This document shows, piece by piece, positions 29,308 to 60,321 of a stretch of 64,000 nt of DNA (position 1 is the stretch's first letter; the number at the start of each line of letters is the position of its first letter). The DNA comes from Bacteroidota bacterium (lineage in GTDB: Bacteria > Bacteroidota > Bacteroidia > Chitinophagales > Chitinophagaceae). Under the pieces are notes generated by a model, which worked only from the letters and a program-made list of their open reading frames with translations, did no database searches and had not been told where the DNA came from. The DNA lies in assembly GCA_016868455.1 (NCBI GenBank), contig VGGV01000008.1, forward strand, positions 1 to 64,000. Direction: 5' to 3'. The position numbers were made by a program, and so were the translations under genes.

Positions 29308-31080
29308 TCATGCTGTAACCATGCCTTTCGGTACCGAGGCAATAAGTTGTTTCGTATAATCCGATTGCGGATTGAAATACACTTCATCTGCCGGCCCGGT
29401 TTCAATGACCTTACCTTTGTTCATTACCATAATGCGGTCACTGATGTAGCGGACAACAGAAAGGTCATGTGAAATAAATATCACGGTAAAGCCAAATTCT
29501 TTTTTCAAATCGTTCAGCAGGTTAAGCACCTGGGCCTGCACACTTACATCCAGCGCCGATACTGATTCATCGCAGACAATAAAAGAAGGGTTCAGTGCCA
29601 GAGCCCTTGCAATAACAATTCGCTGCCGCTGACCGCCGCTGAACTCATGCGGATACCGGTTAAAATGATCAGCCTGCAGATTTACTTTTTCCAGCAGCTC
29701 AACCACTTTGTTCTTTCTCTGCGCGGCAGTTGTATAAAGGCCATGCACTTTCATGGGTTCGGCAATGGCGGAACCGATCGTAATGCGGGGGTTTAATGAA
29801 GAATAGGGGTCCTGAAAAACGATTTGAATTTCCTTACGAAGCGGCAGCAGATCTTCTCTTTTTTTATGTGTCAGGTCAATACCGTTGTAAATTATCTTTC
29901 CTCTGGTGGGTTCAATCAGCCTGAGCAATGTTCTTCCCAATGTGGTTTTGCCGCATCCGCTTTCACCCACAAGGCCAAGCGTTTCACCTTTGTACACATC
30001 AAAACTTATATCATCAACTGCTTTGGTAAAAGAAACGGCTTTACCGAACATTGGTTTTTTGACTGGAAACCAAACCGAGAGATGTTGTACACAGAGGAGG
30101 ACAGAGGGCTGAGGTTTTAGATCAGAAGTCTGAGGGCTGAGGTCTGATGCCAGATGGGCTTTTTCTGACCCGGTAGCTAACGGGTTCTGACTTCCGGCTT
30201 CTGACTTCGGCTTTTCTGCTTCCGGCTTCATTTCTTCCAAAAAGTCACTCACCACCGGCAACCGTTTTCCTCTTTGGTGATTTACCGGCCGGCAGGCAAG
30301 TAATGCTTTTGTATAGGGATGCTGCGAGCTGCTGAAGATAATTTTTACCATACCCTGCTCCACTATTTCACCTTTGTACATCACTATGGCACGGTCAGCG
30401 ATTTCAGCCACTACGCCAAGATCATGAGTAATGAAAATTACACCCATACCGGTTTGCTGCTGCAGTTCTTTTATCAGTTGAAGGATTGTTTTCTGCACCG
30501 TTACGTCAAGGGCCGTGGTGGGTTCATCGCAGATGAGTAAAGAGGGCTCACAGCACATGGCCATGGCGATCATTACCCGTTGCTTTTGTCCGCCGCTTAA
30601 CTGGTGCGGATAGCGGCTGAAAACTGCAGCAGGGTCTGGCAGTTTTACTTTTTCAAACCAGGTGATGGTTTGTTTTTGTGCTTCGGCAAATGAAATCTTT
30701 TTATGCTGCAGGATGGCTTCGGTAACCTGTTCGCCGCTGGTAAGCACCGGGTTCAGTGATGTCATCGGTTCCTGGAAGATCATCGCTATACGGTTTCCGC
30801 GGATATGCTGCATTTCCTGCTGCTTTAGCCGCAATAAGTCGGTAACTGTATTTCCGCCGGCGGAAAATAAAATTTCACCTGACGCATATTTTGCAGGAGG
30901 GGAGGGTAGCAGTTGTAAAACGGAGAAGGCTGTGACTGATTTACCAGAACCCGATTCACCCACCAGCGCCACAATTTCATTACGGGTTACGGAAAATGAG
31001 ATATTTTTCAGCGCCGTGACTGTTGATGACTCTGTAATAAAATCAACCGACAGATTTTTTATGGTCAGCAGGGGATCCAT
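29308..31080 (-). CDS. ABC transporter, two fused ATPase domains (oligopeptide/nickel type)
   Basis: A 590-residue protein with two DppD/DppF-type nucleotide-binding domains. NBD1 has Walker [13 protein letters not shown] (about residue 41), signature LSGGQKQR and Walker [18 protein letters not shown]2 has Walker [13 protein letters not shown] (about 374), FSGGQRQR and [14 protein letters not shown]. It powers uptake of peptides or similar solutes; permease and binding-protein genes are not in the window. Residues about 284-325, between the domains, are encoded by a 7-nt-period repeat tract (30106-30231) and read as an unstructured Ser/Glu/Lys/Pro linker. Confidence 0.9.
30106..30231. repeat. 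Heptad-period tract encoding the ABC ATPase linker
   Basis: About 18 imperfect 7-nt units: GGGCTGA, GGTTTTA, GATCAGA, AGTCTGA, GGGCTGA, GGTCTGA and so on, later ACTTCCG, GCTTCTG, ACTTCGG, GCTTCCG. The first half is TGA-ended units and the second is their approximate reverse complement, so the tract is also partly palindromic. It is 126 nt long, a multiple of both 7 and 3, so it stays in frame. Confidence 0.8.
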
Positions 31081-31081
31081 C

Positions 31082-31453
31082 TCATTTCACCACTTTTATG
31101 GGTAGTGATTTGGAAGGAGTGGGGTAATAGGCCATGCATACTGCACATTCTTTTCCCTTTGATGTATCAATCACAAAGTAAAATTCATCACCCTGTTTAA
31201 GGGAAGAAGGAAAATCACAGGGATTGCCCAGCCGGAATACATTGGTATATTGTTTATTGGTCACCTCATCGGTCCAGTTGGCGACTATAACGTCAGTTCC
31301 GGGATTACCTTCAATGACGCTGATAGTATAGTTCATACAGATGCCGGCCACTTCAAGCCGGCCTTTGAATTTTTGCCCGGTTGATTTATTATTGCATTCG
31401 CCGGCCGGCAGCAGCATGCCTGCTATAGCGGTTAAAAAAATATAGAGTCGCAT
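31082..31453 (-). CDS. Small lipoprotein of unknown function
   Basis: A 123-residue protein with signal peptide and lipobox (LLPAGEC, cysteine near residue 20). The mature part has a cysteine pair in KECAVCMAY and single cysteines elsewhere, with a beta-rich pattern (GRLEVAGICMNYTISVIEG). It ends 1 nt before the double ABC ATPase gene and 9 nt after AMP nucleosidase, so all three may be one operon. Family not recognised. Confidence 0.6.
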   Translation of the reverse strand: MRLYIFLTAIAGMLLPAGECNNKSTGQKFKGRLEVAGICMNYTISVIEGNPGTDVIVANWTDEVTNKQYTNVFRLGNPCDFPSSLKQGDEFYFVIDTSKGKECAVCMAYYPTPSKSLPIKVVK

Positions 31454-31462
31454 GAGGGGTGT

Positions 31463-32233
31463 TTAAAATTTCAGGTGTCGTACGGTCATTCCATCGTTCA
31501 TCAGTTGTTTCAGTGAGTCAATGCCAATTTTCAGGTGGTTCTCCACGTACTGAGCTGTTACGGCTTTATCACTTTCTTCTGTTTTCACTCCTTCGGGTAT
31601 CATCGGCTGGTCGCTTACCAGCAGTAAAGCGCCGGTGGGTATCCTGTTATAAAACCCGACGGTGAAAATGGTGGCTGTTTCCATATCAATGGCATAGGCC
31701 CTTATTTTCTGCAGGTATTCTTTAAAGGGTTCATCATGCTCCCAAACCCGGCGGTTGGTGGTGTACACAGTGCCGGTCCAGTAATCCACACCATAATCCC
31801 GGATGGTGGTGGACACTGCTTTTTGCAAAGCAAAGGCCGGGAGCGCCGGTACTTCGGCCGGAAAATAATCATTGGAAGTACCCTCGCCCCGGATGGCAGC
31901 GATAGGAAGTATCAGATCGCCGATCTTGTTTCTTTTCTTCAGTCCGCCGCACTTGCCAAGAAACAGCACTGCTTTGGGCATAGTGGCCGAGAGCAGGTCC
32001 ATTATCGTGGCGGCAGTGGGGCTGCCCATTCCGAAATTGATGATGGTGATATTATCGGCGGTGGCGCATTGCATCGGTTTGCCTTCACCGGTAACAATGG
32101 TTTTGTTCCATTCGGCAAACAGTTTTACATAGTTGCTGAAGTTGGTCAGCAGGATATATTCCCCGAAACTTTCCAGCGGGGCGCCGGTATAGCGGGGCAG
32201 CCAGTTTTGTACAATCTCTTCTTTGGTCTTCAT
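31463..32233 (-). CDS. amn: AMP nucleosidase (Bacteroidota short type)
   Basis: A 256-residue PNP/UDP-phosphorylase-fold enzyme that splits AMP into adenine and ribose 5-phosphate. Recognised from MKTKEEIVQNWLPRYTGAPLESFGEYILLTNF, LFLGKCGGLKKRNKIGDLILP, RGEGTSNDYFP, YAIDMETATIFTVGF and LVSDQPMIPEGVKTEESD. Start ATG 32233 is chosen over 32251 because it gives the usual N-terminus. It is divergent from the HSDR_N gene with only 31 nt between starts. Confidence 0.88.
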   Translation of the reverse strand: MKTKEEIVQNWLPRYTGAPLESFGEYILLTNFSNYVKLFAEWNKTIVTGEGKPMQCATADNITIINFGMGSPTAATIMDLLSATMPKAVLFLGKCGGLKKRNKIGDLILPIAAIRGEGTSNDYFPAEVPALPAFALQKAVSTTIRDYGVDYWTGTVYTTNRRVWEHDEPFKEYLQKIRAYAIDMETATIFTVGFYNRIPTGALLLVSDQPMIPEGVKTEESDKAVTAQYVENHLKIGIDSLKQLMNDGMTVRHLKF

Positions 32234-32264
32234 GCCTGCGAATTTAATCATTTACTTTTGAAGC

Positions 32265-32705
32265 ATGGTGATTATCAGATATCCCGAACCGTCTTTCCGG
32301 ATCAAAAAAGAAACAAACCGGGAACTGATCTTTGATGTTGTAAGGAAGAAATGGGTAGCGCTGACTCCCGAAGAATGGGTGCGCCAGAATTTCATCAGTT
32401 ACCTTATTGCAGTGAAAAAGTATCCCTCATCACTGATTGCTGTGGAAAAAGAAATACAACTGGGTGAATTAAAAAAGCGATTTGATATACTGGTGTATGA
32501 TACCGGCCATCATCCCTGGATGATGGTGGAATGTAAATCCATTGAAGTGGGGCTGGATGAACGGGTATTACAGCAACTGTTGCGCTATAACATCAGCGTT
32601 CCGGTTCAGTATATGGTCATCACTAACGGCAAACAATGTTTTGCATGGGAGCGAAGGGAGAGCAGGCTTGAAGCTATTTTCGAACTTCCGCTCCTTATAA
32701 AATAA
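32265..32705 (+). CDS. Solo HSDR_N-domain protein (type I restriction subunit N-terminus-like)
   Basis: A 146-residue protein equal to the N-terminal nuclease domain of type I restriction HsdR. The PD-(D/E)XK core is visible as RFDILVYD followed by WMMVECKS, with VITNGKQCFAWER downstream. No helicase, HsdS or HsdM gene is near, so this is a standalone family known widely in Bacteroidota; its job is not established. TACTTTTG (32253-32260) lies 4 nt before the ATG, hinting at leaderless expression. Confidence 0.75.
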   Translation: MVIIRYPEPSFRIKKETNRELIFDVVRKKWVALTPEEWVRQNFISYLIAVKKYPSSLIAVEKEIQLGELKKRFDILVYDTGHHPWMMVECKSIEVGLDERVLQQLLRYNISVPVQYMVITNGKQCFAWERRESRLEAIFELPLLIK

Positions 32706-32707
32706 AA

Positions 32708-32724
32708 GGCAGCCAGGAGCTGCC
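32708..32724. terminator. Bidirectional terminator between convergent genes
   Basis: GGCAGC (32708-32713) pairs with GCTGCC (32719-32724), loop CAGGA. On the minus strand the tail is TTTTATTT; on the plus strand T-rich sequence lies a little farther away. It separates the HSDR_N gene from the minus-strand LolA-like gene. Confidence 0.75.
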
Positions 32725-32743
32725 GTTTGAATAAATGGTTTTT

Positions 32744-33451
32744 TTACTTATCAAAAATTTTTTCATCAACAGGTACATTCAGTTCTACATTGCTGTATGC
32801 AATGGTCTGCAAAGTTTGACCGCCCGTTTTTTGCGTTCTTGTCATGTAGAATTTTAAACCCGCAAATTCTTTCAGATCGCTGAACCAGGTCTCCACTTCC
32901 GTTTCCTGCCCCTGTATTTCTCGGGTATTTGTTACTTTAATCAGATAGTTATCCGCATTACTTATGTAGTAAAAAACGATGCGGCCGTCCTCTTTGGTGG
33001 TTAGTTTTATTTTCCATGTCGTTATACCTTCTACAGCTTCCTGCCCCTGCAGTTCCACTGTATGTCCCTGGCTTTTATTATCCATCAGGGCATTGACCAG
33101 GCTGGCCTGTGCTTTCAGGTTAAGTAATTCAGCGCCTTCTACATCCGTAGCTGTTTCCATGCCGTTAAAAGGGTTAACAGCCCATCCTTTTCCGTCTTTG
33201 TAAACATTTATTACTGCTTGCCCCATAGCATCCACATCCGAACGCATGGCCCTGCCATTGATAATTTGTATGGTCATCGGCAGATCATACCCCCGAACGC
33301 TGACAGTGCCGGTAAATTTTGCGGTTTGCACTTTTTTAAATGCATCAAGGCCTCCCATAGCAGCCGTATATTTCTGAATTACTTCATCAGCGGTTTGGGC
33401 ATTGGTTAAAAGCGAAACAAGAGGGAAGAGGGCTAGAAAAAGTTTTTTCAT
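32744..33451 (-). CDS. Secreted LolA/outer-membrane lipoprotein-sorting-like protein
   Basis: A 235-residue protein with a signal peptide (MKKLFLALFPLVSLLTNAQT), followed by ADEVIQKYTAAMGGLDAFKKVQTAKFTGTVSVRGYDLPM. This fits the LolA/LolB-like half-barrel proteins of Bacteroidota, often annotated as outer-membrane lipoprotein-sorting proteins. It has no lipobox, so a periplasmic location is likely. It appears monocistronic. Confidence 0.65.
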   Translation of the reverse strand: MKKLFLALFPLVSLLTNAQTADEVIQKYTAAMGGLDAFKKVQTAKFTGTVSVRGYDLPMTIQIINGRAMRSDVDAMGQAVINVYKDGKGWAVNPFNGMETATDVEGAELLNLKAQASLVNALMDNKSQGHTVELQGQEAVEGITTWKIKLTTKEDGRIVFYYISNADNYLIKVTNTREIQGQETEVETWFSDLKEFAGLKFYMTRTQKTGGQTLQTIAYSNVELNVPVDEKIFDK

Positions 33452-33561
33452 GAGCGTAATTATATTTCAGGAATTACAAGGTTGAATGTTTTAAAGCGAA
33501 ATTACGCTTTTATACCCCAATGATTGAAACAAAGGGCAATCGGTTGCTTTGATACGATAAA

Positions 33562-34389
33562 TTACTTATGGAGGTAAGCATTTGGCACATTGCCGGGTAA
33601 ATAGCGGATGCCAGAAGCATGCTGCAGCAACAATGATACAGTCTCTGCAACCGCTTTTTCATCCCGGTGCATTTGCGGAAGCAGTCCCATCATGGCATAG
33701 CTTACCGGGTTCACAGCCGGAATAAATGTTTCCCACTCATATCCCTTGCCCCATATTAAACCCGGAACAGTGCTATGCAGGTCAGCTTTTTGTTCCAAAA
33801 GAAACTGCAGCATATCTGCCGACCGGTTATTGTTCTGGTTCACTGTATGAAAAATTGGAGTTTCCCCGCCAAATCCATGTTCATCGGTTCCTGCTTTTGC
33901 ATTGATGTCAGCGCCATGTTTAACTAGTATGCCGGCACAGACCGCATGATTGAATTCCGCACAGATATGCAGCAATGATACTTTGTATAGCGGCGTATAG
34001 GCACAGCGAAGAGTATACTGCTGCTTCGGTGCACCGGGTTTTTTCTTCAGTTGTTCATCCAATGAACCTGCATCATCCAGCAGTACGGCCAATAACACTT
34101 TATCTTCCATTTGCAGGCCTGCATCCGCAAAAGCCCTTACACAATCCTTAAACTGCTGCGACCGGGTGTATTCACTGGTCAGTTCATAAATAAGCGGTTC
34201 GCCTTTGTACGTATCATTAGGATCAATACCATTGGCAAAAGATTCCTTTATCCCCTTCACGTTGTGAAGCTCGATGTCAAGGATTAATTTGTTCAGATAG
34301 TTCACTTGGTTTACAAAAAGGGAAGTTAGGATTCTTTTGAAGATGCCTTGATTCCGCAGCGCAAAAACCCGGCTGTGAGACTCCGGCAT
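33562..34389 (-). CDS. Ankyrin-repeat protein
   Basis: A 275-residue protein. ATG 34389 is chosen because it follows the upstream gene's stop by 7 nt; the longer frame to 34593 only overlaps that gene. Ankyrin-type units are seen at YTPLYKVSLLHICAEFNHAVCAGILVKHGADINAKAG (about residues 145-180) and the next unit GGETPIFHTVNQNNNRSADMLQFLLEQKADLHS. Earlier helices (NKLILDIELHNVKGIKESFANGIDPND) look like a degenerate first repeat. Likely a protein-binding scaffold; partner unknown. Confidence 0.75.
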   Translation of the reverse strand: MPESHSRVFALRNQGIFKRILTSLFVNQVNYLNKLILDIELHNVKGIKESFANGIDPNDTYKGEPLIYELTSEYTRSQQFKDCVRAFADAGLQMEDKVLLAVLLDDAGSLDEQLKKKPGAPKQQYTLRCAYTPLYKVSLLHICAEFNHAVCAGILVKHGADINAKAGTDEHGFGGETPIFHTVNQNNNRSADMLQFLLEQKADLHSTVPGLIWGKGYEWETFIPAVNPVSYAMMGLLPQMHRDEKAVAETVSLLLQHASGIRYLPGNVPNAYLHK

Positions 34390-34396
34390 AAGGCGG

Positions 34397-34893
34397 TTAT
34401 TCAATCCGGTAGTGGTAGTGATAGATAATATAACCGGGTGTACCATAAGTTCCCAAATCCCGTCCAAAGTTTCCGTTTGCCGGAACTGTATTACCGTACT
34501 CCATTTCATCGTAGTAACTTTTTCCCATGGGAAAAAACTGCGATCCTCTTTTCTTAAGATAGTCCCAGTTCCAGGAATAAAACTTTTTGTCATATTCCTG
34601 ATTTTTCGTAATGAATATTTTTATGTACAGGCTGTCATTAATTTTCAGGTAGTCACTCTCAAATCCTATTATAATCGTCTTATTAAAACTTGTTTTGATA
34701 GTTTTATCTGAAAATTCAACACTGTCAATTGTCAACGTCAATTTGAGTTTACTCTTATGAGCGGGGACGATGCATTTAGGACAAGGCATATAAGTGGATG
34801 CTCACTATATGCGTCATATTCTTCTGTTGTTTGTGCTTTTAGTTCGTTGGTTATTAAAAGAAAGAAAATGCTGCTTATTAATAATTGTTTCAT
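34397..34893 (-). pseudogene. Secreted protein of unknown function, apparently frameshifted near its N-terminus
   Basis: ATG 34893 begins a clear signal peptide (MKQLLISSIFFLLITNELKAQ, then TTEEYDAYSEHP). That frame stops at 34738. Another frame opens near 34789 (MPCPKCIVPAHKSKLKLTLTIDSVEFSDK) and runs to 34397, just before the ankyrin gene. The two are joined by a single missing base near 34790, giving a secreted protein of about 165 residues. As a separate gene, the 34789 start would be an odd cytosolic protein. Family not recognised. Confidence 0.5.
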
Positions 34894-36564: not shown

Positions 36565-36592
36565 GTGAATGGTGAATAGTGAAAACTGAATT
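36565..36592. repeat. Four imperfect heptads upstream of gdhA
   Basis: GTGAATG, GTGAATA, GTGAAAA, CTGAATT, four successive 7-nt units. They are separate in sequence from the large array beginning 25 nt later but share its period. Confidence 0.6.
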
Positions 36593-36616: not shown

Positions 36617-36770
36617 CCTTGTACCTTGTACCTTGTACCTTGTACCTTGTACCTTGTACCTTGTACCTTGTACCTTGTACCTTGTACCTTGTACCTTGTG
36701 CCTTGTGCCTTGTACCTTGTACCTTGTACCTTGTACCTTGTACCTTGTACCTTGTACCTTGTACCTTGTA
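36617..36770. repeat. 22-copy heptanucleotide tandem repeat (CCTTGTA)n
   Basis: Exactly 154 nt made of 22 units of CCTTGTA with no indels; units 12 and 13 are CCTTGTG. Because 7 is not a multiple of 3, the plus strand is open in several frames and would encode Leu-Val-Pro-Cys-Thr-Leu-Tyr repeats, which I treat as a by-product. It lies between ccmD (ends 36779) and the gdhA start (36530), both on the minus strand, so it sits in the gdhA upstream region. Copy number is likely to vary by slippage. Confidence 0.97.
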
Positions 36771-36778
36771 CCTTCCTC

Positions 36779-36997: not shown

Positions 36998-36998
36998 T

Positions 36999-38645: not shown

Positions 38646-39557
38646 ATGAAAAAGATAACCTGTTTGATTGCCGCTGCTGTTGTCCTTTTTGCAGCAGTAA
38701 GTTTTGAAGCCTGCCAGACCACCAAAACCAGCACGGCCACCAAAATGCTGAAGTTTGACCTGGAAAAAGGAAAGGGGTATGATTATGAAATGACCGTAAG
38801 CATGGACCAGGAAATCATGGGCCAGGAGATAAAAATGGATATGACCACCTATTATTCCATGGACGTAAATGGGGATGACAGCGGTACCAAAACCATTGTT
38901 TCATCATTTGAAAGATTTAAACTGAAAACAGAAGTAGCGGGTTTCAATATTGATGTGGACACAGATAAACCGGTGAGTTCCGACACGGCTGAACTTAAAA
39001 AAGACCCCATGCAGATATTCAACAGGATATTCGGTTCCATCAAGGGGCAAAAATTCACTATGAAGGTGAACCCCGAAGGAAAAATAACGGAGGTAACCGG
39101 GTTTGAGAACATGGCAGAGAACATAGCCGGATCGCTGGGTCTTGATGAAGATGAAAAGCAGGAAATGATGAAGGAGTTCAATGGCCAGTTCAATGCAGAT
39201 GAGATCAAACAAAACCTGGAACGGTTCTGGTATATTTTTCCAAATAAGGAAATTAAAGTAGGCGATACCTGGGATAAAGTTTCAGAAGTTGGCGGCAAGT
39301 TGCCTGCCCGGTATAAATCAACGTACAAGGTAACGGATATTGAAGGGGATATGGTAACCCTTGAGGAGGTGAGTAAAATTGAATCGAAGGGAGATGAAAA
39401 ACTCAGCCTCAGCGGAGAAGTGACCGGCACCATTGTGGTGGACAGCCGCAGCGGGCTGGTAGTAACTGCCGACCAGGACATGGATATAAAAGCTTCCGGC
39501 GGAGGAATGAGCTTTGACATAAAGGGCAAATCAAAAATAAAAGGCAAAGCGAGGTAG
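38646..39557 (+). CDS. DUF6263-like lipoprotein
   Basis: A 303-residue protein with signal peptide and lipobox (VSFEAC, cysteine at about residue 23). The mature part is beta-rich and charged (KGKGYDYEMTVSMDQEIMGQEIKMDMTTYYSMDV; FWYIFPNKEIKVGDTWDKVSEVGGKLPARYKSTYKV). This matches the Bacteroidota DUF6263 type as I remember it. Function unknown, probably outer-membrane associated. Confidence 0.65.
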   Translation: MKKITCLIAAAVVLFAAVSFEACQTTKTSTATKMLKFDLEKGKGYDYEMTVSMDQEIMGQEIKMDMTTYYSMDVNGDDSGTKTIVSSFERFKLKTEVAGFNIDVDTDKPVSSDTAELKKDPMQIFNRIFGSIKGQKFTMKVNPEGKITEVTGFENMAENIAGSLGLDEDEKQEMMKEFNGQFNADEIKQNLERFWYIFPNKEIKVGDTWDKVSEVGGKLPARYKSTYKVTDIEGDMVTLEEVSKIESKGDEKLSLSGEVTGTIVVDSRSGLVVTADQDMDIKASGGGMSFDIKGKSKIKGKAR

Positions 39558-39670
39558 ATGGTTAATTAGTTAATTGGTTATTAGGGATACTTCGTTAGCA
39601 GCGGGGGTCGTTCTGCTTTAAAGCCTGTTTCCGAATTCCCCCTCCCCCAATCACTAATTAACTAATCTAC
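39555..39670. repeat. Imperfect inverted repeat with heptad-like arms between DUF6263 gene and tdk
   Basis: GTAGATGGTTAATTAGT near 39555-39571 is matched in inverse orientation by ACTAATTAACTAATCTAC near 39653-39670, with about 80 nt between. The left arm continues as GTTAATT/AGTTAATT/GGTTATT, a 7-8-nt period. It lies between convergent genes and overlaps the tdk stop. Confidence 0.6.
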
Positions 39671-40339: not shown

Positions 40340-41056
40340 ATGGAACGACTGGAATCCCTCATACTTAAACTGAAACAGCAATTTGAACAAAAAGCCGACC
40401 CCGCCCTGATGCTGGGTACGGTGCAGTTGCTGGAGTTTGAACTTTCCAAAATGAACGCCACCGTCAGGCAGAGCCTGGGCACCGCAAAAGTGGCGGTGGT
40501 ACTTCCGCTTAACCAGGCGGTTGCCTCGGCCGTGGGCGCCGAATACGAAAGGTATGCCCCCAGACCGGCCGATCAGCCTGTTATAAAAGAACCTGAAAGC
40601 CACCGGGTGAAAGAGACCTTACTGGTGGATGAAGGCTCCGTTTCACTGCTGCAGAAGAACGGCCAGCTGGATATGGTGTTTGACCCGATGACAGAAATAC
40701 CCACCCTTTCTCACCAGGGAAAAGAAAAGGAAGTGAACGATAACGCTGCACAGGGCGAATCGCTGAACGATAAATTGCGGCAGGGAAAAACGGAGCTGGT
40801 GGAAGTGCTGAAAGAAACCCCGGTGAAAGACCTGCGCAAGGCCATCGGCATCAACGACCGGTTTCTTTTCATCAACGAGCTTTTCCGGGGCGATGAAGCC
40901 ATGTATGAGCGCTGCATCAAAACCATCAACAGTTTTAATATTTATGCGGAAGCGGAGTACTGGATCACAAGGGAACTGAAAGTGAAACTGGGCTGGAACA
41001 GCGACAGCAACACCGTGCTGCATTTTGATCAGCTGGTCAAAAGACGGTTTTCCTGA
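40340..41056 (+). CDS. Conserved Bacteroidota protein of unknown function
   Basis: A 238-residue soluble protein. The N-terminal 60 residues are predicted coiled/helical (MERLESLILKLKQQFEQKADPALML), the middle is acidic and low complexity, and the C-terminal 70 residues are strongly patterned (KDLRKAIGINDRFLFINELFRGDEAMYERCIKTINSFNIYAEAEYWI). I have seen this C-terminal pattern in many Bacteroidota hypothetical proteins but know no function. Its 3' end overlaps the end of waaA on the other strand by 28 nt. Confidence 0.7.
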   Translation: MERLESLILKLKQQFEQKADPALMLGTVQLLEFELSKMNATVRQSLGTAKVAVVLPLNQAVASAVGAEYERYAPRPADQPVIKEPESHRVKETLLVDEGSVSLLQKNGQLDMVFDPMTEIPTLSHQGKEKEVNDNAAQGESLNDKLRQGKTELVEVLKETPVKDLRKAIGINDRFLFINELFRGDEAMYERCIKTINSFNIYAEAEYWITRELKVKLGWNSDSNTVLHFDQLVKRRFS

Positions 41057-42291
41057 ATAAAGTTCAGAATCTTTTGCGTGGCCCCCGCATTTTTTCTTAC
41101 AAATTCACCGGCAGCCCCGGCTGAAAGGCTGTACCGGCTGCTGTCATGAAGCAATTTCCCGATCACCTGCGCCATTGCTTTTTCATTTTCCACCACAATG
41201 CCTCCATTGCTGTTTACGAGGCCTGCCGCTTCAATATACTTATGGTAATAAGGCCCCATGAGGACGGGTTTTGAATAAACAGCCGCTTCCAGCACATTAT
41301 GCACTCCCATTTTTTTAAGACCGCCTCCCACATAGGTTATATACCCGTACCTGTACAGGCGGGACAGCATCCCGAAATTGTCTATAATGAGACAGTCAGA
41401 AGAATGAGCCAGTTCCTTTTTTTCTTTCAGCTCAGAAAAAAGTATGGCTGATGGAAAAAGCTGCCTGAGCGCAGCCAGTTTGTTATTGTACAGTTCATGC
41501 GGTGCCATGATGAGTTTGATGGAGCCGGCCGGTAATTGCTGAAAAGTTTTTTGCAGCATTACCTCATCTTCAGGCCAGGTGCTGCCCGCAACCAGTGTTT
41601 TGGATGTGCCGGTAAATTCTTCAAGGAGTGGAATGGGTTCAAATTGCCCGGCAATTTCAATTACCCTGTCGTATCGGGTATCACCGGATATACCAGCAAT
41701 GTTGCCCAGCCCGATTTCATTTAACAAACGTAAAGAATTTTCATCCTGCACAAACAGGTGATCAAAGCGGGAAAGGATTTTGCGCTGCAGCCCGCCATAC
41801 CATTTAAAGAAGGACATATCTTTTCTGAAAAGAGCGGAAATAAGCAGCAGCGGGATATTGCGGTATTTTATTTTTTTCAGGTAATAATACCAGAACTCAT
41901 ACTTTACAAAAATCACCAGCGATGGATGAACGATTTCCAGAATTTTTTTTGCATTGCGGGGCCCATCCGCCGGCAGGTAAAAAACCCAGTCCGCGCCTTC
42001 ATAATCTTTCCGTACCTCATAGCCCGAAGGGGAGAAGAATGTGAGCAGTATTTTGGCATTTGGGATTTGAAATTTGAGTTTTTCTATCACTGGCCTGCCC
42101 TGTTCAAACTCGCCCAGCGAAGCACAGTGCACCCAGATGATTTTTTCCTTTTTTGGTATGGCCTGTTCCAGTTTTTTGAATATTCCTTTTCGCCCCTGCA
42201 CCCAATTTTTTGCCTTTGGGTTAAATAAAGCGGCAATGCGGGTACCCGCCCGAAACAGGAGTAAGAATATATTGTAAAGAAATACTGACAA
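41029..42291 (-). CDS. waaA: 3-deoxy-D-manno-octulosonic acid (Kdo) transferase
   Basis: A 420-residue GT-B glycosyltransferase that adds Kdo to lipid A at the inner membrane. It has an N-terminal membrane anchor, then IIWVHCASLGEFEQGRPVIEKL with the catalytic glutamate in the family's SLGE motif, LLTFFSPSGYEVRK, and in the second domain YVGGGLKKMGVHNVLEAAVYSKPVLMGPYYHKYIEAAGLV. A short DNA stretch at 42050-42080 (AAACTCA, AATTTCA, AATCCCA, AATGCCA on the coding strand) has a 7-nt period and encodes LKFQIPNAK. Confidence 0.92.
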   Translation of the reverse strand: MSVFLYNIFLLLFRAGTRIAALFNPKAKNWVQGRKGIFKKLEQAIPKKEKIIWVHCASLGEFEQGRPVIEKLKFQIPNAKILLTFFSPSGYEVRKDYEGADWVFYLPADGPRNAKKILEIVHPSLVIFVKYEFWYYYLKKIKYRNIPLLLISALFRKDMSFFKWYGGLQRKILSRFDHLFVQDENSLRLLNEIGLGNIAGISGDTRYDRVIEIAGQFEPIPLLEEFTGTSKTLVAGSTWPEDEVMLQKTFQQLPAGSIKLIMAPHELYNNKLAALRQLFPSAILFSELKEKKELAHSSDCLIIDNFGMLSRLYRYGYITYVGGGLKKMGVHNVLEAAVYSKPVLMGPYYHKYIEAAGLVNSNGGIVVENEKAMAQVIGKLLHDSSRYSLSAGAAGEFVRKNAGATQKILNFIQENRLLTS

Positions 42292-47791: not shown

Positions 47792-48669
47792 TGGCAACCA
47801 TTCAAAAAATATTGGTAACTGGGGCCAATGGCCAGTTGGGTAAAGAGCTGCAGCAACTGGCTCCCGGGTTTCCGGATTATGAATTTATTTTCCTTTCAAA
47901 AGAAGACCTGCCCATTCATCATTTTGAAATGGTGCGGCATTACTTCAGCGTTTACCACCCCGCTTATGTGATTAACTGCGCCGCTTACACGGCAGTTGAC
48001 AGGGCCGAGACGGAAAAAGAACGGTCCTGCCAGATAAATGGCGAAGCAGTGGGTGTGCTGGCTGCTATCTGTAAAGAAAATAACTGCCGGCTTATTCATA
48101 TTTCCACCGATTATGTTTTTGACGGCACGGCAACTGTTCCGTATAAAGAGGAGGATACAACAAACCCTCAGTCCGCTTACGGGGCCAGCAAACTGGAAGG
48201 GGAGCAGCAGGCGATGCAATTCAATCCTGACTGTATTATCATCCGTACTTCATGGGTTTATAGCGAATACGGAAAAAATTTTGTAAAGACCATGGTGAAG
48301 CTGATGGGTGAAAAGAAAGAGATCCATGTAGTAAATGACCAGGTTGGTTCGCCTACGTATGCAGCGGATCTGGCGGAAGCGATTTTGCAGATTATTGCCA
48401 ATTGTCAATCGTCAATCGTCAATTGCCAGGGAGGCATTTATCATTTTTCAAATACCGGTATTATCAACTGGTACGATTTTGCTTTGGCAATCAAAGAACT
48501 CACCGGCAGTACATGTAAAATCAATCCCATTCCCACATCGCAATATCCCACACCGGCAAAAAGACCGGCGTATTCTGTGCTGGATACAGCAAAAATTCAA
48601 AAGGTGTTTGGCATTAGGCTGAAAGAATGGAAAGACAGTCTGAAGGCTTGTATTAGCAAGCTTAAATAA
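47791..48669 (+). CDS. rfbD: dTDP-4-dehydrorhamnose reductase
   Basis: A 292-residue SDR enzyme, last step of dTDP-L-rhamnose synthesis. Rossmann motif ILVTGANGQLGKELQQL, YVINCAAYTAVDRAETE, STDYVFDG and the YxxxK site in PQSAYGASKLEGEQ. Residues 203-211 (ANCQSSIVN) come from a 7-nt-period tract and replace the short variable loop normally found before IYHFSN. The protein remains in frame and full length. Confidence 0.92.
   Translation: MATIQKILVTGANGQLGKELQQLAPGFPDYEFIFLSKEDLPIHHFEMVRHYFSVYHPAYVINCAAYTAVDRAETEKERSCQINGEAVGVLAAICKENNCRLIHISTDYVFDGTATVPYKEEDTTNPQSAYGASKLEGEQQAMQFNPDCIIIRTSWVYSEYGKNFVKTMVKLMGEKKEIHVVNDQVGSPTYAADLAEAILQIIANCQSSIVNCQGGIYHFSNTGIINWYDFALAIKELTGSTCKINPIPTSQYPTPAKRPAYSVLDTAKIQKVFGIRLKEWKDSLKACISKLK
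48397..48424. repeat. Heptad tract inside rfbD
   Basis: GCCAATT, GTCAATC, GTCAATC, GTCAATT, four 7-nt units followed by GCCAGGG. It is fully coding in rfbD. The unit differs from the arrays near gdhA and in the ABC gene but has the same period. Confidence 0.8.
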
Positions 48670-51203: not shown

Positions 51204-51275
51204 TGTTTATGGTTTATTATTTTTTGTTTATCGTTGTTTGAATTCAGAAAGGCAAAACAATAAACCATAAACTCA
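51204..51275. repeat. Heptad-period inverted repeat between aminotransferase and permease
   Basis: GTTTATGGTTTATT (51205-51218) is the exact inverse of AATAAACCATAAAC (51259-51272) with a 40-nt spacer. Both arms and the spacer show 7-nt units (TGTTTAT, GGTTTAT, TATTTTT, TGTTTAT; AATAAAC, CATAAAC). It could act as a terminator or as a hairpin before the permease start. Confidence 0.75.
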
Positions 51276-53626: not shown

Positions 53627-53755
53627 GGCAGTAGTTAATAAGTTAATTGGTTGAGAAGTTGATCGGGGTTTGAGAATTTCTCAGGGAATTTTACTGAAGT
53701 ACTCCCGTCATTCCAATTGTCTTCAGTTTGTATTTTTACCTGCTAAAGAATTAAA

Positions 53756-55697: not shown

Positions 55698-55787
55698 TTC
55701 TAAACCAGTGATTTAGCACAAAAGTAAGCCAGAATAAGGTTGTCACTCCGGAGAAGCAATATTTTTCTAATTAATTCGGTTTCAAAC

Positions 55788-55839
55788 ATTAGTCTTTTGC
55801 CTCTGTAAGCCCTATGTATTTCCGCAGCTAAAGACTAAT
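55788..55839. repeat. Inverted repeat in the tyrS-porV-like gap
   Basis: ATTAGTCTTT (55788-55797) and AAAGACTAAT (55830-55839) form a 10-bp perfect stem with a 32-nt spacer. The gap between tyrS and the PorV-like gene (about 240 nt) has no other feature; the hairpin may lie in either leader. Confidence 0.55.
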
Positions 55840-55938
55840 TTTACTGGGTACTTTGTATTTTTCTGAAAGCTAAACTGTACAAGCAGCCCGTACGTATGAA
55901 AGCGAGTCTTAATCAAACGCTTATCGAAAATTGTCCGA

Positions 55939-57051
55939 ATGAAACCAACCACCCTTATTTTGTCCCTGTTGACAACTGTTTTTTCTGTAACCGCAACTGC
56001 ACAATTCAGAAAATATTCCAATGAATTTTTGAATATTGGCGCCGGCGCCCGGGGCTTGGCCATGGGCGGCTCACAGGTAGCGTCTGTACAGGACGGTACT
56101 GCCGGATACTGGAACCCTGCGGGACTGGTGGGAGTTAAAAACAACCCCCAGGTGAACCTGATGCATGCTGAATACTTTGCTGGAATCGGCAAATACGATT
56201 ATGCCGGCGTGGCTTTTCCCACTTCCAATAATAAAAGAACCCTCGGTGTAACCGGGTTACGGTTTGCCGTAGACGATATCATGAATACACTGTTCCTGGT
56301 AGAACCCGACGGGTCCATTAACTATAACAACATCCAGGCATTTTCTTCGGCAGACTATGCATTCCTATTTTCCTTTGCACAAAAATTGCGGGAAAGTGAA
56401 AAAAAGAATATCCATTTTGGCCTGAATGCAAAAGTCATTCACCGCAGTGTGGGCAAGTTTGCCAAAGCATGGGGTTTTGGCCTTGATGCAGGGTTGCAGA
56501 TATACAGTAACAAATGGAAATTTGGTATTGCCGGCCGGGATATTACCAGCACATTCAATGCCTGGTCATTCAGTTTTACAGAAAGGGAAAAAGAAGTTTT
56601 ATACCTGACAAAAAATGAAATACCCGTAAAATCAACTGAGCTTACAGCTCCACGCCTGGTGCTGGGAGTAGCCCGGGATTTTAAACTGGGCAAAAAACTA
56701 AACCTGCTGGCCGAAGCCAATATAGATGTGACATTTGATGGCCAGCGCAATACACTGCTCAGCGCAGACCCGGTAAGTGCCGATCCCAAACTGGGATTCG
56801 AACTGAACATCAGCCATGTGTTTTTCCTGCGGGGCGGCATCAATAATTTTCAGCGGGCTTTGTCAGATGGCGACACACTTAATCAAAAGAAAGTTTGGAT
56901 TTATCAGCCCGGAGGAGGCGCCGGCTTCAGAATAGGAGGCGTAACTATCGACTATGCCTTTACCAATCTCGCCAATCAGTCTAACCCTTTGTTTACCCAT
57001 GTCTTTTCATTGAGACTGGATATGGTGAAACCTAAAAAAGAAAACGATTAA
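55939..57051 (+). CDS. PorV/PorQ family outer-membrane protein
   Basis: A 370-residue beta-barrel protein with a signal peptide (MKPTTLILSLLTTVFSVTATAQ). The N-terminus RKYSNEFLNIGAGARGLAMGGSQVASVQDGTAGYWNPAGLVGV is the PorV/PorQ (UPF0164-like) signature, and the rest alternates polar and hydrophobic residues. PorV carries type IX cargo to the PorU sortase at the cell surface. It is followed 31 nt later by the remnant of a PorU2-like gene, which supports a T9SS role. Confidence 0.8.
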   Translation: MKPTTLILSLLTTVFSVTATAQFRKYSNEFLNIGAGARGLAMGGSQVASVQDGTAGYWNPAGLVGVKNNPQVNLMHAEYFAGIGKYDYAGVAFPTSNNKRTLGVTGLRFAVDDIMNTLFLVEPDGSINYNNIQAFSSADYAFLFSFAQKLRESEKKNIHFGLNAKVIHRSVGKFAKAWGFGLDAGLQIYSNKWKFGIAGRDITSTFNAWSFSFTEREKEVLYLTKNEIPVKSTELTAPRLVLGVARDFKLGKKLNLLAEANIDVTFDGQRNTLLSADPVSADPKLGFELNISHVFFLRGGINNFQRALSDGDTLNQKKVWIYQPGGGAGFRIGGVTIDYAFTNLANQSNPLFTHVFSLRLDMVKPKKEND

Positions 57052-57082
57052 TAAATCCGAACCTGCTTAAAAACTGAATCTG

Positions 57083-57390
57083 ATGAAAAGAATTTTACTT
57101 CCATTTTTACTGTTTACCGGACTCTTTGCCGGTGCACAGCCCTATAATTACAATAACGAATGGATAGATTACAGTAAAACGTATTATAAGTTCAAGCTGC
57201 CGGCCGCAATATCACCGAATTTAAATGGGATGGCACCGATCAGTATGGCCAAAAGCTGGCAAACGGTGTTTATCTGTACCGGGTGGTTACCAACCTGAAT
57301 GGCAAGTCGCTTGACAAATACAGACCCGAAGGAGATGAAACGGATAAATTCTTCAATAAGGGATATGGAAAAATGTACCTGATGACATAG
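57083..57390 (+). pseudogene. Remnant of a large PorU2-like T9SS sortase gene (two ends, middle lost)
   Basis: From ATG 57083 there is a signal peptide (MKRILLPFLLFTGLFAGAQ) and about 18 more residues (NNEWIDYSKTYYKFKLP). At 57199-57205 (GCCGGCC) the meaningful frame changes. The other frame then reads AGRNITEFKWDGTDQYGQKLANGVYLYRVV ... DKFFNKGYGKMYLMT to a stop at 57390, which resembles the FlgD-like C-terminal end of large PorU2/C25-type proteins. Over a thousand codons would be missing. Identification rests on the two ends and the PorV neighbour, so the family is tentative; the internal loss is clear. Confidence 0.55.
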
Positions 57391-57397
57391 GGATGAA

Positions 57398-57425
57398 ATA
57401 ACAAAAAACAAATCGCAAATAACAA
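57398..57425. repeat. Four A-rich heptads after the PorU2-like remnant
   Basis: ATAACAA, AAAACAA, ATCGCAA, ATAACAA, 7-nt period. A T-rich tract of the same period (TTTGGAA, TTTGTGA, TTTTTCA, TCTTGTA) lies at about 57504-57531 just before hscA. Confidence 0.6.
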
Positions 57426-57455
57426 AAGGTTTCCGGAATCGGAGACCTTTTTTGT
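57425..57455 (+). terminator. Terminator before hscA
   Basis: An 11-bp stem (57425-57435 with 57440-57450, one G-T pair), loop GAAT, then TTTTTG. It would end the PorV/PorU2-like transcript. Confidence 0.8.
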
Positions 57456-57490
57456 TTCTGCCTTCGTAAATACAAGCCGCATTCCTTTGC

Positions 57491-57498
57491 TACATTTG
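57491..57498 (+). promoter_or_regulatory. -7 box of hscA
   Basis: TACATTTG matches TAnnTTTG and lies 45 nt before the GTG start at 57544. A partial -33 (TTCG) lies 24 nt upstream. Confidence 0.5.
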
Positions 57499-57543
57499 CC
57501 CTGTTTGGAATTTGTGATTTTTCATCTTGTAATTTTTTCAGTT

Positions 57544-59430
57544 GTGGCAAAGATTGGCATTAACATATCAACCGGCAGCCTTCAGCAGCCCGAAATGATC
57601 GTGGGGATTGACCTGGGTACCACCAACAGCCTGGTGGCCATCATTCATCCGGAAAGCAGAAAGCCGGTTGTGCTGAAGGAACATGACGGGAATGCCCTTG
57701 TACCATCCGTTATTCATTTTGGGGAGGGAGGATTTATTACTGTAGGCGATGAGGCTAAGAAATATCTTATCAGCGAACCCCACAACACTATTTTTTCTGT
57801 AAAACGGCTGATGGGTAAGTCGTACAATGATGTAAGGGAGTACTCATCTTTTTTCACCTACAAAATAATTGATGATAACACAGAAACCCTGGTGAAAGTA
57901 CAGGCGAGAGAAAAATTTTATTCGCCCATTGAACTGTCATCTTTCATATTAAAAGAACTGAAAACAAGGGCCGGGCATATCCTGAAAACTCCTGTTACCA
58001 AAGCAGTCATTACTGTCCCCGCTTATTTTAATGATGCGCAGCGGCAGGCCACCCGTGATGCAGGAAAGCTGGCAGGGCTGGATGTTTTGCGGATCGTAAA
58101 TGAACCAACTGCAGCAAGCCTGGCGTATGGCCTGGGATTAAAAAAAGATGAAACCCTGCCCTCCGGAGCTTTAGCGAAGGAGGGAAAAACAATAGCGGTG
58201 TATGACCTGGGCGGCGGTACATTTGATATTTCCATACTCAGGATTACAGGAGGTATTGTTGAGGTGCTTTCAACTAATGGTGACACTTACCTTGGGGGCG
58301 ATGATTTTGACCGGGTTATTGTCTCTCATTGGGTAAAACAGACTGGTTTGACCGGTGAAGAACTGCAGCAAAATAAAAATGTTGCGCAGGAACTGAGACT
58401 TGTTGCGGAACAGGCAAAAATATACCTCAGTTCACAGGATGTATTTCATGCGGAAGTGGCAGGACAGAAACTGCATCTTTCAAGAAATGAATTTGAGAGG
58501 TTGATAAACTCATTCATTGAAAAAACCATTCAATGCTGCAAAAATGCATTGCAGGATGCAAAATTGGGTAATGACGAAATTGATGAAGTAGTGATGGTGG
58601 GGGGTTCTACCAGGGTTCCCCTTGTGAAAGAAAACGTAAGAAAATTTTTCTCAAGAGAATTACATGATACATTAAACCCTGATGAAGTAGTGGCGTTGGG
58701 CGCTGCTGTGCAGGCCGATATTCTGGCAGGAAACAACCGGGATTTCCTGCTGCTTGATATCACTCCGCTTTCGCTGGGAATTGAAACCATGGGCGGACTG
58801 ATGGATGTGCTTATACCCCGAAATTCAAAAGTCCCTTCAAAGGCCGCAAGACAATACACCACACAGAAAGACGGGCAAAGCGGAATTAAAATAGCCGTTT
58901 ATCAGGGGGAAAGGGATCTTGTAAAAGATAACCGCAGGCTGGCAGAATTCATTCTTTCAGGAATTCCTGCTATGCCGGCCGGCCTGCCCAAAGTGGAAAT
59001 TTCTTTCCTGGTAAATGCAGACGGCATATTAATGGTAAAAGCAAAAGAACTGCGAAGCGGGGTGGAACAAAGTGTGGAAGTAAAACCGCAATACGGTCTT
59101 ACAGATGAGGAAGTGGAAAGAATGCTGCTTGATTCGGTGACACATGCCAAAGCGGATATGCATACAAGGGTCCTGGTGGAAGCCCGGACGGAGGCACAAC
59201 AGTTATTGTCAGCCACAGAACAGTTTCTGGCAAAGAATAAAAATATACTTACTCCTGAAGAGCTGGAGCATACAAATGCAGCCATGGAGGAATTGCAGCA
59301 TGTTCTTTCATCGGGTAACAAAGATCTGGTTCATGCGGCAATCGAAAAACTGAACGAAATTTCACGACCATACGCAGAGCGGCTGATGGATCAGGCCATC
59401 AGTGCGGCGATGAAAGGGAAGAAGATTTGA
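57544..59430 (+). CDS. hscA: Hsp70-type chaperone for Fe-S cluster assembly
   Basis: A 628-residue Hsp70. Start GTG 57544 ([31 protein letters not shown]) matches the usual HscA N-terminus; the longer frame starts before the -7 box. ATPase motifs are [43 protein letters not shown] and [11 protein letters not shown]. The substrate-binding domain starts near [17 protein letters not shown]. HscA helps move Fe-S clusters from IscU; no iscU or hscB is in the window. Residues about 206-214 (PSGALAKEG) come from a palindromic repeat in a loop of the ATPase domain just before the phosphate-2 motif. Confidence 0.9.
58159..58184. repeat. In-frame palindrome in hscA
   Basis: CCCTCC (58159-58164) pairs with GGAGGG (58179-58184), with CTCCGGAG nested at 58161-58168 and TTTAGCGAAGG between. 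It encodes PSGALAKEG in the chaperone. A relative lies at 63239-63266 between tRNA genes. Confidence 0.75.
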
Positions 59431-59950
59431 TAAGCATTTGTTTTATTATTTCCCGCAACTTTAATATCCCGAAACCTATCACTAAAAGATGAACAAGTAA
59501 TGCGGAAAGCCAGACTGCTTTTCGCTGGTAGCGGAAGTCGATAACCAATTCACCTGCCGGGATGTTAACAGTAATTCCCGGCCTTCCTTTTTCAATGATT
59601 GGTTTTTCCTTATTATTAATATATACTTTCCAGCCGGGATAATGATTTTGCAGCAAAGTGATTTGCCCGGCTGCCCCTGTTTTTACTTCTGTACGGATAT
59701 AACCGGGCCGCTGCCGGGTGACCCTGGCAGTGCGATTAACTGAGTCGCTTCCCGAATAAAATACCAGCGAATGATTACCGGCAGCTAATTTTTCGTCAGC
59801 AACTGTTCTTTTCAGCACAAGTGGCCCGGGATATGATTCATCTGCCGCAACTTGTTTCGAAAAAACATTTACGTTATGCCAGGCATTGCCTTTTTCGTCA
59901 GTATACACTACAGGCACATCACCGGGCTTTTGCTCCTGTACCGCCTTGAT
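59399..59950 (-). pseudogene. C-terminal fragment of a large membrane protein (YfhO-like), truncated at an IS3 junction
   Basis: About 180 residues without a proper start. It begins near AVQEQKPGDVPVVYTDEKGNAWHNVNVFSKQVAADE, continues through a beta-rich domain (ITLLQNHYPGWKVYINNKEKPIIEKGRPGITVNIPAGELVIDFRYQ) and ends with a hydrophobic helix (LSALLVHLLVIGFGILKL). This layout matches the end of YfhO-type membrane glycosylation-related proteins. Upstream sequence turns into IS3 transposase code at about 59945-59952, so the long multi-helix N-terminus is missing. It converges with hscA, overlapping by about 30 nt. Confidence 0.6.
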
Positions 59951-60321
59951 CACGTACCAGTTCTTCTGCTAAATGCCTTTTAGTGGCAGGGCCCAGCCTT
60001 TTTTTGTGAACAGATCCTTGAGAATTTGATTGTCGATTGCAAGATCTGCGTACATTTTTTGAGTCGGGCATTCTCTTCTTCAAGAGTCTTCATTTTTTTA
60101 ACATCGGAAATCTCCATACCTCCATATTTGACCTTCCAGTTATAAAACGTAGCCTCGCTGACGCCCAGTTCACGACAAACCTCACGGGTGGAGATGCCTG
60201 CTTCTTGCTTTTTTAGGGCGGAGACAATCTGGGCCTCCGTAAATCGGGATTTTTTTATGACAGTTTAAATTTAAGATTAATACTCAAGTTTTAAACCGTC
60301 TGCTTTTTAGGGATACTTACA
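59945..60321 (-). mobile_element. IS3-family insertion sequence remnant (orfA and start of orfB)
   Basis: On the minus strand the element begins with TGTAAGTATCCC (60321-60310), a plausible terminal inverted repeat. It then encodes an IS3 OrfA helix-turn-helix (KKSRFTEAQIVSALKKQE, AGISTREVCRELGVSEATFYNWK, VKYGGMEISDVKKMKTLEEENARL). The start is ATA at 60258-60256, apparently a mutated ATG. One A is missing in the A run at 60055-60060, breaking OrfA in its leucine zipper. OrfB-like KRHLAEELVRDQG begins and is cut off at about 59950. No DDE domain or right end is present, so it is immobile. Confidence 0.85.

What the first reader, a model, noticed from the sequence alone, without database searches (positions are those of the whole stretch)
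30106..60000. A family of strictly 7-nt-period tracts with unrelated unit sequences
Besides the gdhA array, tracts with 7-nt period occur at 30106-30231, 36565-36592, 48397-48424, 51204-51275, 57398-57425 and about 57504-57531, more loosely at 39555-39580 and 53630-53660, and inside waaA at about 42050-42080. Unit sequences differ (GTCAATC, TGTTTAT, GGTCTGA, ATAACAA, GTGAATA) but the period is shared. This suggests a common generating process, not descent from one repeat.
Basis: seen in the sequence. Interest (0 to 1): 0.75.

Follow-up and report, generated by a model that had tools for sequence, protein, structure and literature searches.

The report
Seven-base repeat hairpins between bacterial genes
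Stretches of DNA repeating every seven bases turn up again and again between genes in this family of bacteria, often as mirror-image pairs that can fold into hairpins; a preference for seven was already known in other bacteria, and its cause is still unexplained.

Summary
The period-7 signal is real. Of nine listed tracts (gdhA array aside) seven show it; 39555-39580 and 53630-53660 have period 8. In 1.264 Mb of the genome, lag-7 arrays (score >=12) number 26, against 8 at lag 8 and 2 at lag 9; 80 relatives' loci peak alike. One orthologous slot (gdhA-ccmC) holds lag-7 arrays in 10 of 84 cases (0.4 in shuffles), in several unlike words. Two corrections: arrays often have an inverted partner (8 of 40 own, 23 of 63 relatives; control 2.5%), and words are not unrelated. 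Sampled stretches of one relative, G135, hold large composite heptad hairpins. Heptamer excess and inverted word pairs are in print for other bacteria. Best reading, inferred: DNA-level slippage plus template switching across hairpins, tolerated mostly between genes. Against it: shared loop cores in G135 and similar words kept at one slot. Y1 transposase, Ku and reverse transcriptase do not track one word's load. Why seven remains open.

The parts
36617..36774 (.). CCTTGTA array, 22.6 copies, between gdhA and a small ccmD-like ORF (both - strand)
   Evidence: TRF 98% matches; absent from the syntenic slot of G022; the word x3 in 2 of 294 family genomes, the own included
36565..36589 (.). GTGAATG/A tract upstream of gdhA
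   Evidence: lag 7 0.76 over 36565-36592; same word widespread in the order
30104..30147 (.). left arm, GAGGTCT/GAAGTCTG-like heptads inside the linker of a 590-aa fused ABC ATPase gene (gene on - strand)
   Evidence: TRF period 14; folds with the right arm; linker longer than in the eight closest relatives. My strict inverted-repeat scan did not list it
30181..30229 (.). right arm, TTCTGAC/CTTCTGA-like heptads, inverted relative to the left arm
   Evidence: TRF period 14, fold
48394..48424 (.). GTCAATC/T heptads inside an rmlD-like gene (+ strand), read in frame as ANCQSSIVNCQ
   Evidence: lag 7 0.86; five residues longer than all 19 same-genus orthologues and without the W of their W-x-x-G loop
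51205..51223 (.). left arm of heptad hairpin, GTTTATG words, just after the stop of the upstream gene (51199)
   Evidence: inverted repeat score 16, loop 30
51254..51272 (.). right arm of the same hairpin
39565..39586 (.). left arm of hairpin between convergent genes, GTTAATTA-type words of period 8
   Evidence: inverted repeat score 13, lag 8 0.78, fold
39645..39666 (.). right arm, ends one base before the next gene's stop codon (39667)
42052..42076 (.).
   Evidence: lag 7 0.71; score 10; no lag-7 array in the G022 orthologue
53630..53660 (.). AGTTAATA-type tract, period 8 not 7
   Evidence: lag 8 0.65, lag 7 0.33; similar words at this slot in G001, G021, G022 by eye
57396..57426 (.). AAATAAC heptads, left of a terminator-like hairpin
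   Evidence: TRF; fold pairs part of it with 57504-57531 around that hairpin
57504..57531 (.). weak heptad tract, partner of the tract above in the fold
   Evidence: lag 7 0.67, p=0.001; fold

Best explanation
The tracts belong to a known bacterial class: short tandem-word arrays with a preferred step of 7 nt (less often 8 or 9) that arise again and again, locally, mostly between genes. Inferred mechanism: (1) strand slippage during replication or repair copies a 7-nt step and, repeated, makes an array of near-identical words; (2) where the strand can fold back, template switching across the hairpin copies the array onto the other side in mirror image, so that two inverted arms grow together; (3) purifying selection removes arrays from genes and, in the burst genome, they are scarce between divergent genes, so they persist behind stop codons and in a few permissive protein linkers; (4) some lineages have bursts in which one word series fills many sites. 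Shown: the 7-nt peak, occurrence at one slot with unlike words, inverted pairing, depletion from genes, no excess of G-U over A-C mismatches. Inferred: slippage, template switching and the reason for seven.
For: Lag-7 peak in the own genome, in 80 relatives' gdhA loci and in G022. Several unlike words at one orthologous slot, 10 of 84, and at the ABC linker; two own hairpin slots in G022 are empty or hold another word. Inverted partner within 150 bp in 8 of 40 and 23 of 63 arrays against 2.5% of 515 control draws. Arms of inverted repeats (score >=14) show lag 7 in 5 of 15 own and 18 of 82 relatives' cases, other lags at most 1 and 7. G135: composite mirrored arms (CGTGAGR)n(GTGAATR)n, loop, mirror image. 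Unit order mirrored a little beyond word identity: 28 blocks, 0.923 against 0.899, sd 0.007. Arm mismatches on the transcribed strand between tandem genes: 30 G-U, 32 A-C. Only 17 of 50 own arrays lie in genes although 87% is called coding.
Against: No slippage or template-switch event was seen; no strains close enough were compared. Words recur more than a sequence-blind process predicts. Loops of G135 hairpins share a core (AACTTAYAA: 6 in or near 21 loops, 2.2 kb; 5 elsewhere in 555 kb of both strands), which speaks for copying between loci. At the cphB slot AGTTAATT/AGTTGATT-like words appear by eye in the window, G001, G021 and G022 and not in G018, which looks like descent. Only a minority of arrays have a detected inverted partner, and direct partners are also in excess in relatives (9 of 63 against 2.7%; own 1 of 40). 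The net gain in the rmlD-like gene is 15 nt, not a multiple of 7. Nothing found explains why lags 5 and 6 are nearly empty at score >=12.
Confidence: 0.5

Rival explanations
1. Dispersed mobile palindromes (REP- or MITE-like): whole hairpins with repeat-built arms are copied from site to site by an enzyme acting in trans, and the arms then change length.
For: Many sites in the sampled G135 stretches (43 of 130 intergenic regions of 60 bp or more; stretches partly chosen for matches); shared loop core and two nearly identical loops 24 kb apart (L300 7466, L301 11502); word recurrence between genomes; favoured between convergent genes (13 of 20 convergent, 26 of 83 tandem, 4 of 27 divergent).
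Against: Unlike words at the same orthologous slot; Y1 transposase family PF01797 does not track the load: none in G318 (24 GTGAATN matches), one weak in G243 (235 matches), four in G123 (no matches). Other transposases not tested.
Confidence: 0.22
2. Selected binding arrays: each word is a site for a DNA- or RNA-binding protein that reads 7-nt steps, and arrays regulate neighbouring genes.
For: Non-random vocabulary; a varied seventh position in GTGAATN places (the pattern itself fixes the other six); the Geobacter metallireducens authors call similar paired word sites predicted global regulator binding sites; CspB binding to heptamer repeats is discussed in PMC4679880.
Against: In G135 arrays are scarce between divergent genes and lie near stops; words differ at orthologous slots; no lag-7 array at the gdhA-ccmC slot in 74 of 84 cases. 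In the own genome 13 of 31 intergenic arrays are start-proximal against 8.9 expected, which would fit this rival.
Confidence: 0.14
3. RNA hairpins kept by selection as terminators or 3' stabilisers of mRNA.
For: Very stable predicted folds (to -219 kcal/mol); position within 20 bp of stop codons (G135 32 of 43 against 22.9 expected; relatives 20 of 41 against 10.0, own 14 of 31 against 8.8); terminator-like cores inside some loops.
Against: G-U and A-C mismatches equal on the transcribed strand (30 and 32); own genome also has start-proximal arrays.
Confidence: 0.08
4. Assembly artefact or chance.
For: The own genome is a 64-contig assembly, and most relatives searched by name are MAGs.
Against: Lag-7 arrays also occur in records of named strains (Lacibacter cauensis L033, Niastella soli L041, Sediminibacterium goheungense L043, Ferruginibacter sp. 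HRS2-29 L057); shuffles give no lag-7 segment at score >=12.
Confidence: 0.02

Closest known systems
Heptanucleotide long simple sequence repeats of prokaryotes (Mrazek and co-workers 2007; paper not held; seen only as described in passages of PMC4679880 and PMC4692102)
   Same: Heptamers the most abundant class in most genomes rich in long repeats; a polymerase contact of about 7 nt proposed as cause
   Different: Here many arrays are imperfect and some are paired in mirror image; the data are from Chitinophagaceae
Paired tandem word sites of Geobacter metallireducens (PMC2700814; passages, including legends of supplements)
   Same: Tandem 7- or 8-nt words (MTYCTGA, GTTGCTYN, TWGTTGAY); classes mostly found in pairs on opposite strands at variable distance; CTTCTGA also occurs in the window at 30181-30229
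   Different: There small families matched by BLAST and read as regulator binding sites; here also composite arms to about 110 nt and different words at one slot
GGGAATC repeats of Xanthomonas (PMC4692102, passages)
   Same: Heptamers, mostly intergenic, close inverted pairs in 70 and 75 cases in two species, variable length between species
   [quoted passage not shown] here many words
TAACTGA repeats of Beggiatoaceae, cyanobacteria and some Bacteroidetes (PMC4679880, passages)
   Same: Intergenic heptamer direct repeats with patchy distribution; other heptamer repeats noted in intergenic regions of two Bacteroidetes
   Different: One word, mostly just upstream of start codons, one inverted case in the main genome; here often inverted and, in G135, near stop codons
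REP elements and RAYT transposases (PMC3733652; listing and passages)
   Same: Extragenic palindromes in many copies, near the 3' ends of upstream ORFs
   Different: Palindromes of 20-40 bp with a tag; no 7-nt periodic arms in the passages seen; Y1 transposase does not track here

Membership tests
bacterial heptanucleotide SSR class | tandem 7-nt repeats in excess over other unit lengths | tested here: met
   imperfect repeats counted too
bacterial heptanucleotide SSR class | mainly intergenic | tested here: met
   33 of 50 own arrays outside called genes with 13% non-coding (a simple gene caller of my own, which missed the ORF at 41029-42291)
Geobacter-type paired word sites | tandem words in pairs on opposite strands at variable distance | tested here: met
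   met for a minority of arrays: 8 of 40 own, 23 of 63 relatives
Geobacter-type paired word sites | same consensus word MTYCTGA | tested here: inconclusive
   CTTCTGA at window 30181-30229 fits by eye; AGTCAGA x3 in only 5 of 298 genomes, control none; Geobacter DNA itself was not searched
REP/RAYT | association with a Y1 (RAYT-like) transposase | tested here: not met
   PF01797 in 20 of 26 genomes, counts do not follow GTGAATN counts
REP/RAYT | GTAG or CGTC tag at one end of a short palindrome | not tested
   feature from the title of PMC3733652
MITE | target-site duplication and empty sites in relatives | tested here: inconclusive
   slots without arrays exist; target duplications were not looked for, intergenic DNA being diverged
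intrinsic terminator | GC-rich stem followed by a T run | not tested
   arms shown do not look so, by eye; inner cores >=7 bp in 6 of 34 loops, control rate 0.11
cyanobacterial STRR | heptamer families of cyanobacteria | not tested
   no cyanobacterial genome was searched

The most novel reading that the evidence does not exclude
A so far unrecognised DNA synthesis or repair activity with a fixed step of about 7 nt and a preferred vocabulary writes tandem words in mirror image around hairpins; similar words and layout recur in distant phyla (MTYCTGA pairs printed for Geobacter, CTTCTGA arms here) because the activity, not the repeat, is shared.
Probability: 0.15. Interest if true: 0.85.

Novelty: new variant of a known kind. 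Interest (0 to 1): 0.5.

Why it matters
In the papers seen, the bacterial preference for seven-base repeat units has a proposed cause (polymerase contact) but no test. The gdhA-ccmC slot gives replicate cases at one place, and G135 beside its same-genus neighbour G157 (200 and 0 GTGAATN matches) gives a pair in which a burst could be compared directly for the enzyme responsible. It also warns that long mirror-image stretches between genes, and some inserts in protein linkers, may be products of this process and not regulatory sites.

Tried and rejected
Word class: I first thought all words share a GT..A core; 49 of 71 own and 59 of 93 relatives' arrays hold GT or AC, which by my own rough reckoning, not a call, is little above composition, and I dropped it. 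RNA selection: expected more G-U than A-C mismatches; 30 against 32, so rejected as the main force. End joining: Ku (PF02735) is absent from the own genome, G135 and G301 and present in 10 of 26 genomes, six of them with no GTGAATN match: not required. Reverse transcriptase (PF00078, 9 of 26): absent from the own genome, G135 and G243: not required. RAYT-type transposase: not tracking. These tests use one word as measure of load, so they are weak for genomes with other words. Terminator cores as seeds: 6 of 34 loops against a control rate of 0.11, not convincing (loops under 13 nt counted as without core). Stop-codon bias in the own genome is weak and start-proximal arrays are also in slight excess (14 against 8.8, 13 against 8.9). 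Word control: the reversed GTGAATN word equals the word itself in G286 (34 against 36) and is alone in G275 (20 against 0). An early inverted-repeat scan counted masked N runs as repeats and was redone; one script failed on a file name and one timed out, redone. The register comparison (0.868 against 0.777 and 0.757) is biased because the best register was chosen; one search allows for this and leaves a small effect. My words that the Chitinophagaceae hairpins were not found in print rest on searches of an open-access library. After it I mended: the word list of the slot and its GTGA members, the cphB slot result, the rmlD loop motif, three membership rows, and lowered the best explanation from 0.55 to 0.50, raising the mobile rival from 0.20 to 0.22, the binding rival from 0.13 to 0.14 and the RNA rival from 0.07 to 0.08.
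Full report
Setting. The window is G000:C8:1-64000 of a 2.64-Mb, 64-contig genome.

The observation. I scored runs of lag-p identity (+1 match, -2 mismatch), left out tracts explained by units of 1-3 bases, and compared lags. In the window, score >=10 gives 5 segments at lag 7 (0.3 in shuffles), none at lag 8 and 0-3 at the other lags from 4 to 21. Tract by tract, seven of the nine listed (besides the gdhA array) carry lag 7, two of them weakly; two have period 8. Without the gdhA array the pooled intergenic match rate of the window shows no lag-7 peak, so the window alone would not carry the claim. A larger sample does: in 1.264 Mb of the own genome, score >=12 gives 26 at lag 7, 15 at lag 14, 8 at lag 8, 5 each at lags 16, 21 and 27, 4 each at 18 and 28, 2 at lag 9 and 0-1 at lags 4-6 and 10-11. 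Eighty gdhA loci of relatives (1.45 Mb, all around one gene, so not a random sample) give 37 at lag 7, 23 at 14, 16 at 21, 9 each at 8 and 18, 6 at 9 and 2 at 6. In sampled stretches of the same-genus genome G022 (365,243 bases, 32,000 of them masked) the figures are 8 at lag 7, 4 at 14, 3 each at 9 and 24, and 1 at 8.

One slot, many genomes. gdhA and ccmC are near neighbours in most of the loci examined, with a small ORF between them in the window, so the DNA between them is one orthologous slot. Lag-7 arrays (score >=9) occur in 10, against 0.4 in shuffles; lag 8 in 4, lag 9 in none, lags 4, 6 and 12 in 4-5, lag 14 in 7, lag 21 in 8. The ten hold several unlike words; four also hold a GTGA-type word (window, L045, L064, L074) and two an AAGTAGT word (L061, L074), for which common descent is not excluded. 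In syntenic G022 the own gdhA array and the hairpin between the convergent genes at 39565-39666 are absent, and the slot behind 51199 holds an ACACGGATT-type inverted pair where the own genome has GTTTATG words. The cphB slot tells otherwise: AGTTAATT/AGTTGATT-like words of period about 8 appear by eye in the window, G001, G021 and G022 and not in G018. At the convergent slot, G010 has its own lag-7 and lag-8 arrays, L053 a lag-8 array, and G020, L025 and G022 none. On balance this supports a recurring process with some descent.

Inside genes. Of 50 own arrays, 17 lie in genes by my simple caller, which% of the DNA coding; it missed the ORF at 41029-42291. So genes are strongly avoided. In the rmlD-like gene the tract 48394-48424 makes the protein five residues longer than all 19 same-genus orthologues, which share a W-x-x-G loop whose W is lost here (29 orthologues shown). 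In the fused ABC ATPase the linker is 171 nt in the window and 102-147 nt in the eight closest relatives; the script called a heptad array there in G001 (score 15) and a short one in the window (score 8), and none in the other 25 loci shown; AATAATG-like heptads in G022 are seen by eye.

Mirror pairs. Arrays tend to have an inverted partner within 150 bp (8 of 40 own, 23 of 63 relatives, against 2.5% in 515 control draws); direct partners are 1 of 40 and 9 of 63 against 2.7%; arrays within 200 bp of the end of a locus were left out. Conversely, among inverted repeats of score >=14, 5 of 15 in the own genome and 18 of 82 in relatives have lag-7 arms, other lags at most 1 and 7. In the window the pairs are 51205-51223/51254-51272, 39565-39586/39645-39666 (period 8) and, by fold only, 30104-30147/30181-30229 and weakly 57396-57426/57504-57531 around a terminator-like hairpin.

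A burst. G135, same family, holds 96+104 matches of GTGAATNGTGAATNGTGAAT and 131+136 of CGTGAGNCGTGAGNCGTGAG with none of the reversed controls (overlapping matches of one array count separately). In 277,552 bases of it (stretches partly chosen because they hold matches, so densities are not genome averages) lag 7 gives 79 segments at score >=12, lag 8 none and lag 9 one; lags 16 and 23 (12 and 10) fit 7+9 spacings. Many are arms of large hairpins, outer (CGTGAGR)n, inner (GTGAATR)n, loop, mirror image; others use GATGACR/GATGTTG or AGCTAWY words. Heptad segments lie in 43 of 130 intergenic regions of 60 bp or more: 13 of 20 convergent, 26 of 83 tandem, 4 of 27 divergent; within 20 bp of a stop codon in 32 of 43 (22.9 expected), of a start codon in 7 (12.4 expected). 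G157, of the same genus as G135, has no match to either pattern.

DNA or RNA level. In 32 heptad hairpins of G135, arm mismatches on the transcribed strand between tandem genes are 30 G-U and 32 A-C; convergent 23 and 23, divergent 5 and 5. Selection for RNA pairing would favour G-U. The order of variant units is mirrored slightly beyond word identity (28 blocks, 0.923 against 0.899, sd 0.007), as template switching would give. Against a purely local origin, G135 loops share a core (6 AACTTAYAA in or near 21 loops, 5 elsewhere).

Vocabulary. Among 81 independent arrays, identical word pairs number 19 against 4.4 +- 1.9 in letter shuffles, pairs within one mismatch 166 against 85.6 +- 9.4. GTGAATN x3 occurs in 48 of 298 genomes of the order and 31 of 140 genera, the reversed word in 7 of 298 by my count of the table; in G286 word and control are alike and in G275 only the control occurs. 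AGTCAGA x3 occurs in 5 of 298, control none; CCTTGTA x3 in 2 of 294 family genomes, the own included. So words are many but not random.

Enzymes. In 26 genomes with high, low or no GTGAATN load, Y1 transposase (20 of 26), Ku (10 of 26) and reverse transcriptase (9 of 26) do not follow the load. Replicative and translesion polymerases were not tested.

Prior work. Heptamers as the most abundant long repeats, with a polymerase explanation, are reported by Mrazek and co-workers as described in PMC4679880 and PMC4692102 (passages; the paper itself is not held). Inverted heptamer pairs are reported in Xanthomonas (PMC4692102, passages), and 7- and 8-nt word sites, mostly paired on opposite strands, in Geobacter metallireducens, with consensus MTYCTGA, GTTGCTYN and TWGTTGAY (PMC2700814, passages). 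A survey finds inverted repeats over-represented between genes, tandem repeats of longer units normally or only weakly over-represented in general, and suggests that mismatch repair is poor on longer loops (PMC4060949, passages). I found no description of composite heptad hairpins in Chitinophagaceae in the searches named under Tried and rejected, which cover open-access papers only.

Verdict. The finding is real, wider than stated and partly known. New here, as far as my searches reach, are the slot with replicate cases, the mirror pairing in this family and the burst genome. The cause of the 7-nt step remains open.

Noticed in passing
L026 1145-1274, 4846-4953, 7612-7733, 16719-16802: One MAG (ES-bin-252) carries several long hairpins whose arms are built of 8- or 9-nt words (CGCAAAG, TTGGTTGC, GTTTAAGA, GTTGATTA types), so the phenomenon is not limited to seven.
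   Followed up: partly
L085: Record titled Beijerinckiaceae bacterium encodes a gdhA 80% identical to the window's with ccmC nearby; perhaps a mislabelled or mixed bin.
   Followed up: no
L087 11720-11861: Perfect 69-bp palindrome with a 4-nt loop at the very end of the record, perhaps an assembly fold-back.
   Followed up: no
L294 16333-16432 and L296 2919-2997: Two G135 hairpin loops, in different stretches, hold the same core AAAAAGGCCTCAAATGAGGCCTTTTT.
   Followed up: partly
L276 1-147: In G243 a CGCAAAG-type word pair sits inside the loop of an AAAAGTC-like heptad hairpin: nested words.
   Followed up: no
window 20025-20062: Compact inverted repeat AACCTCTGCGTCCCCTC with a loop of 4, outside the finding's range.
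   Followed up: no
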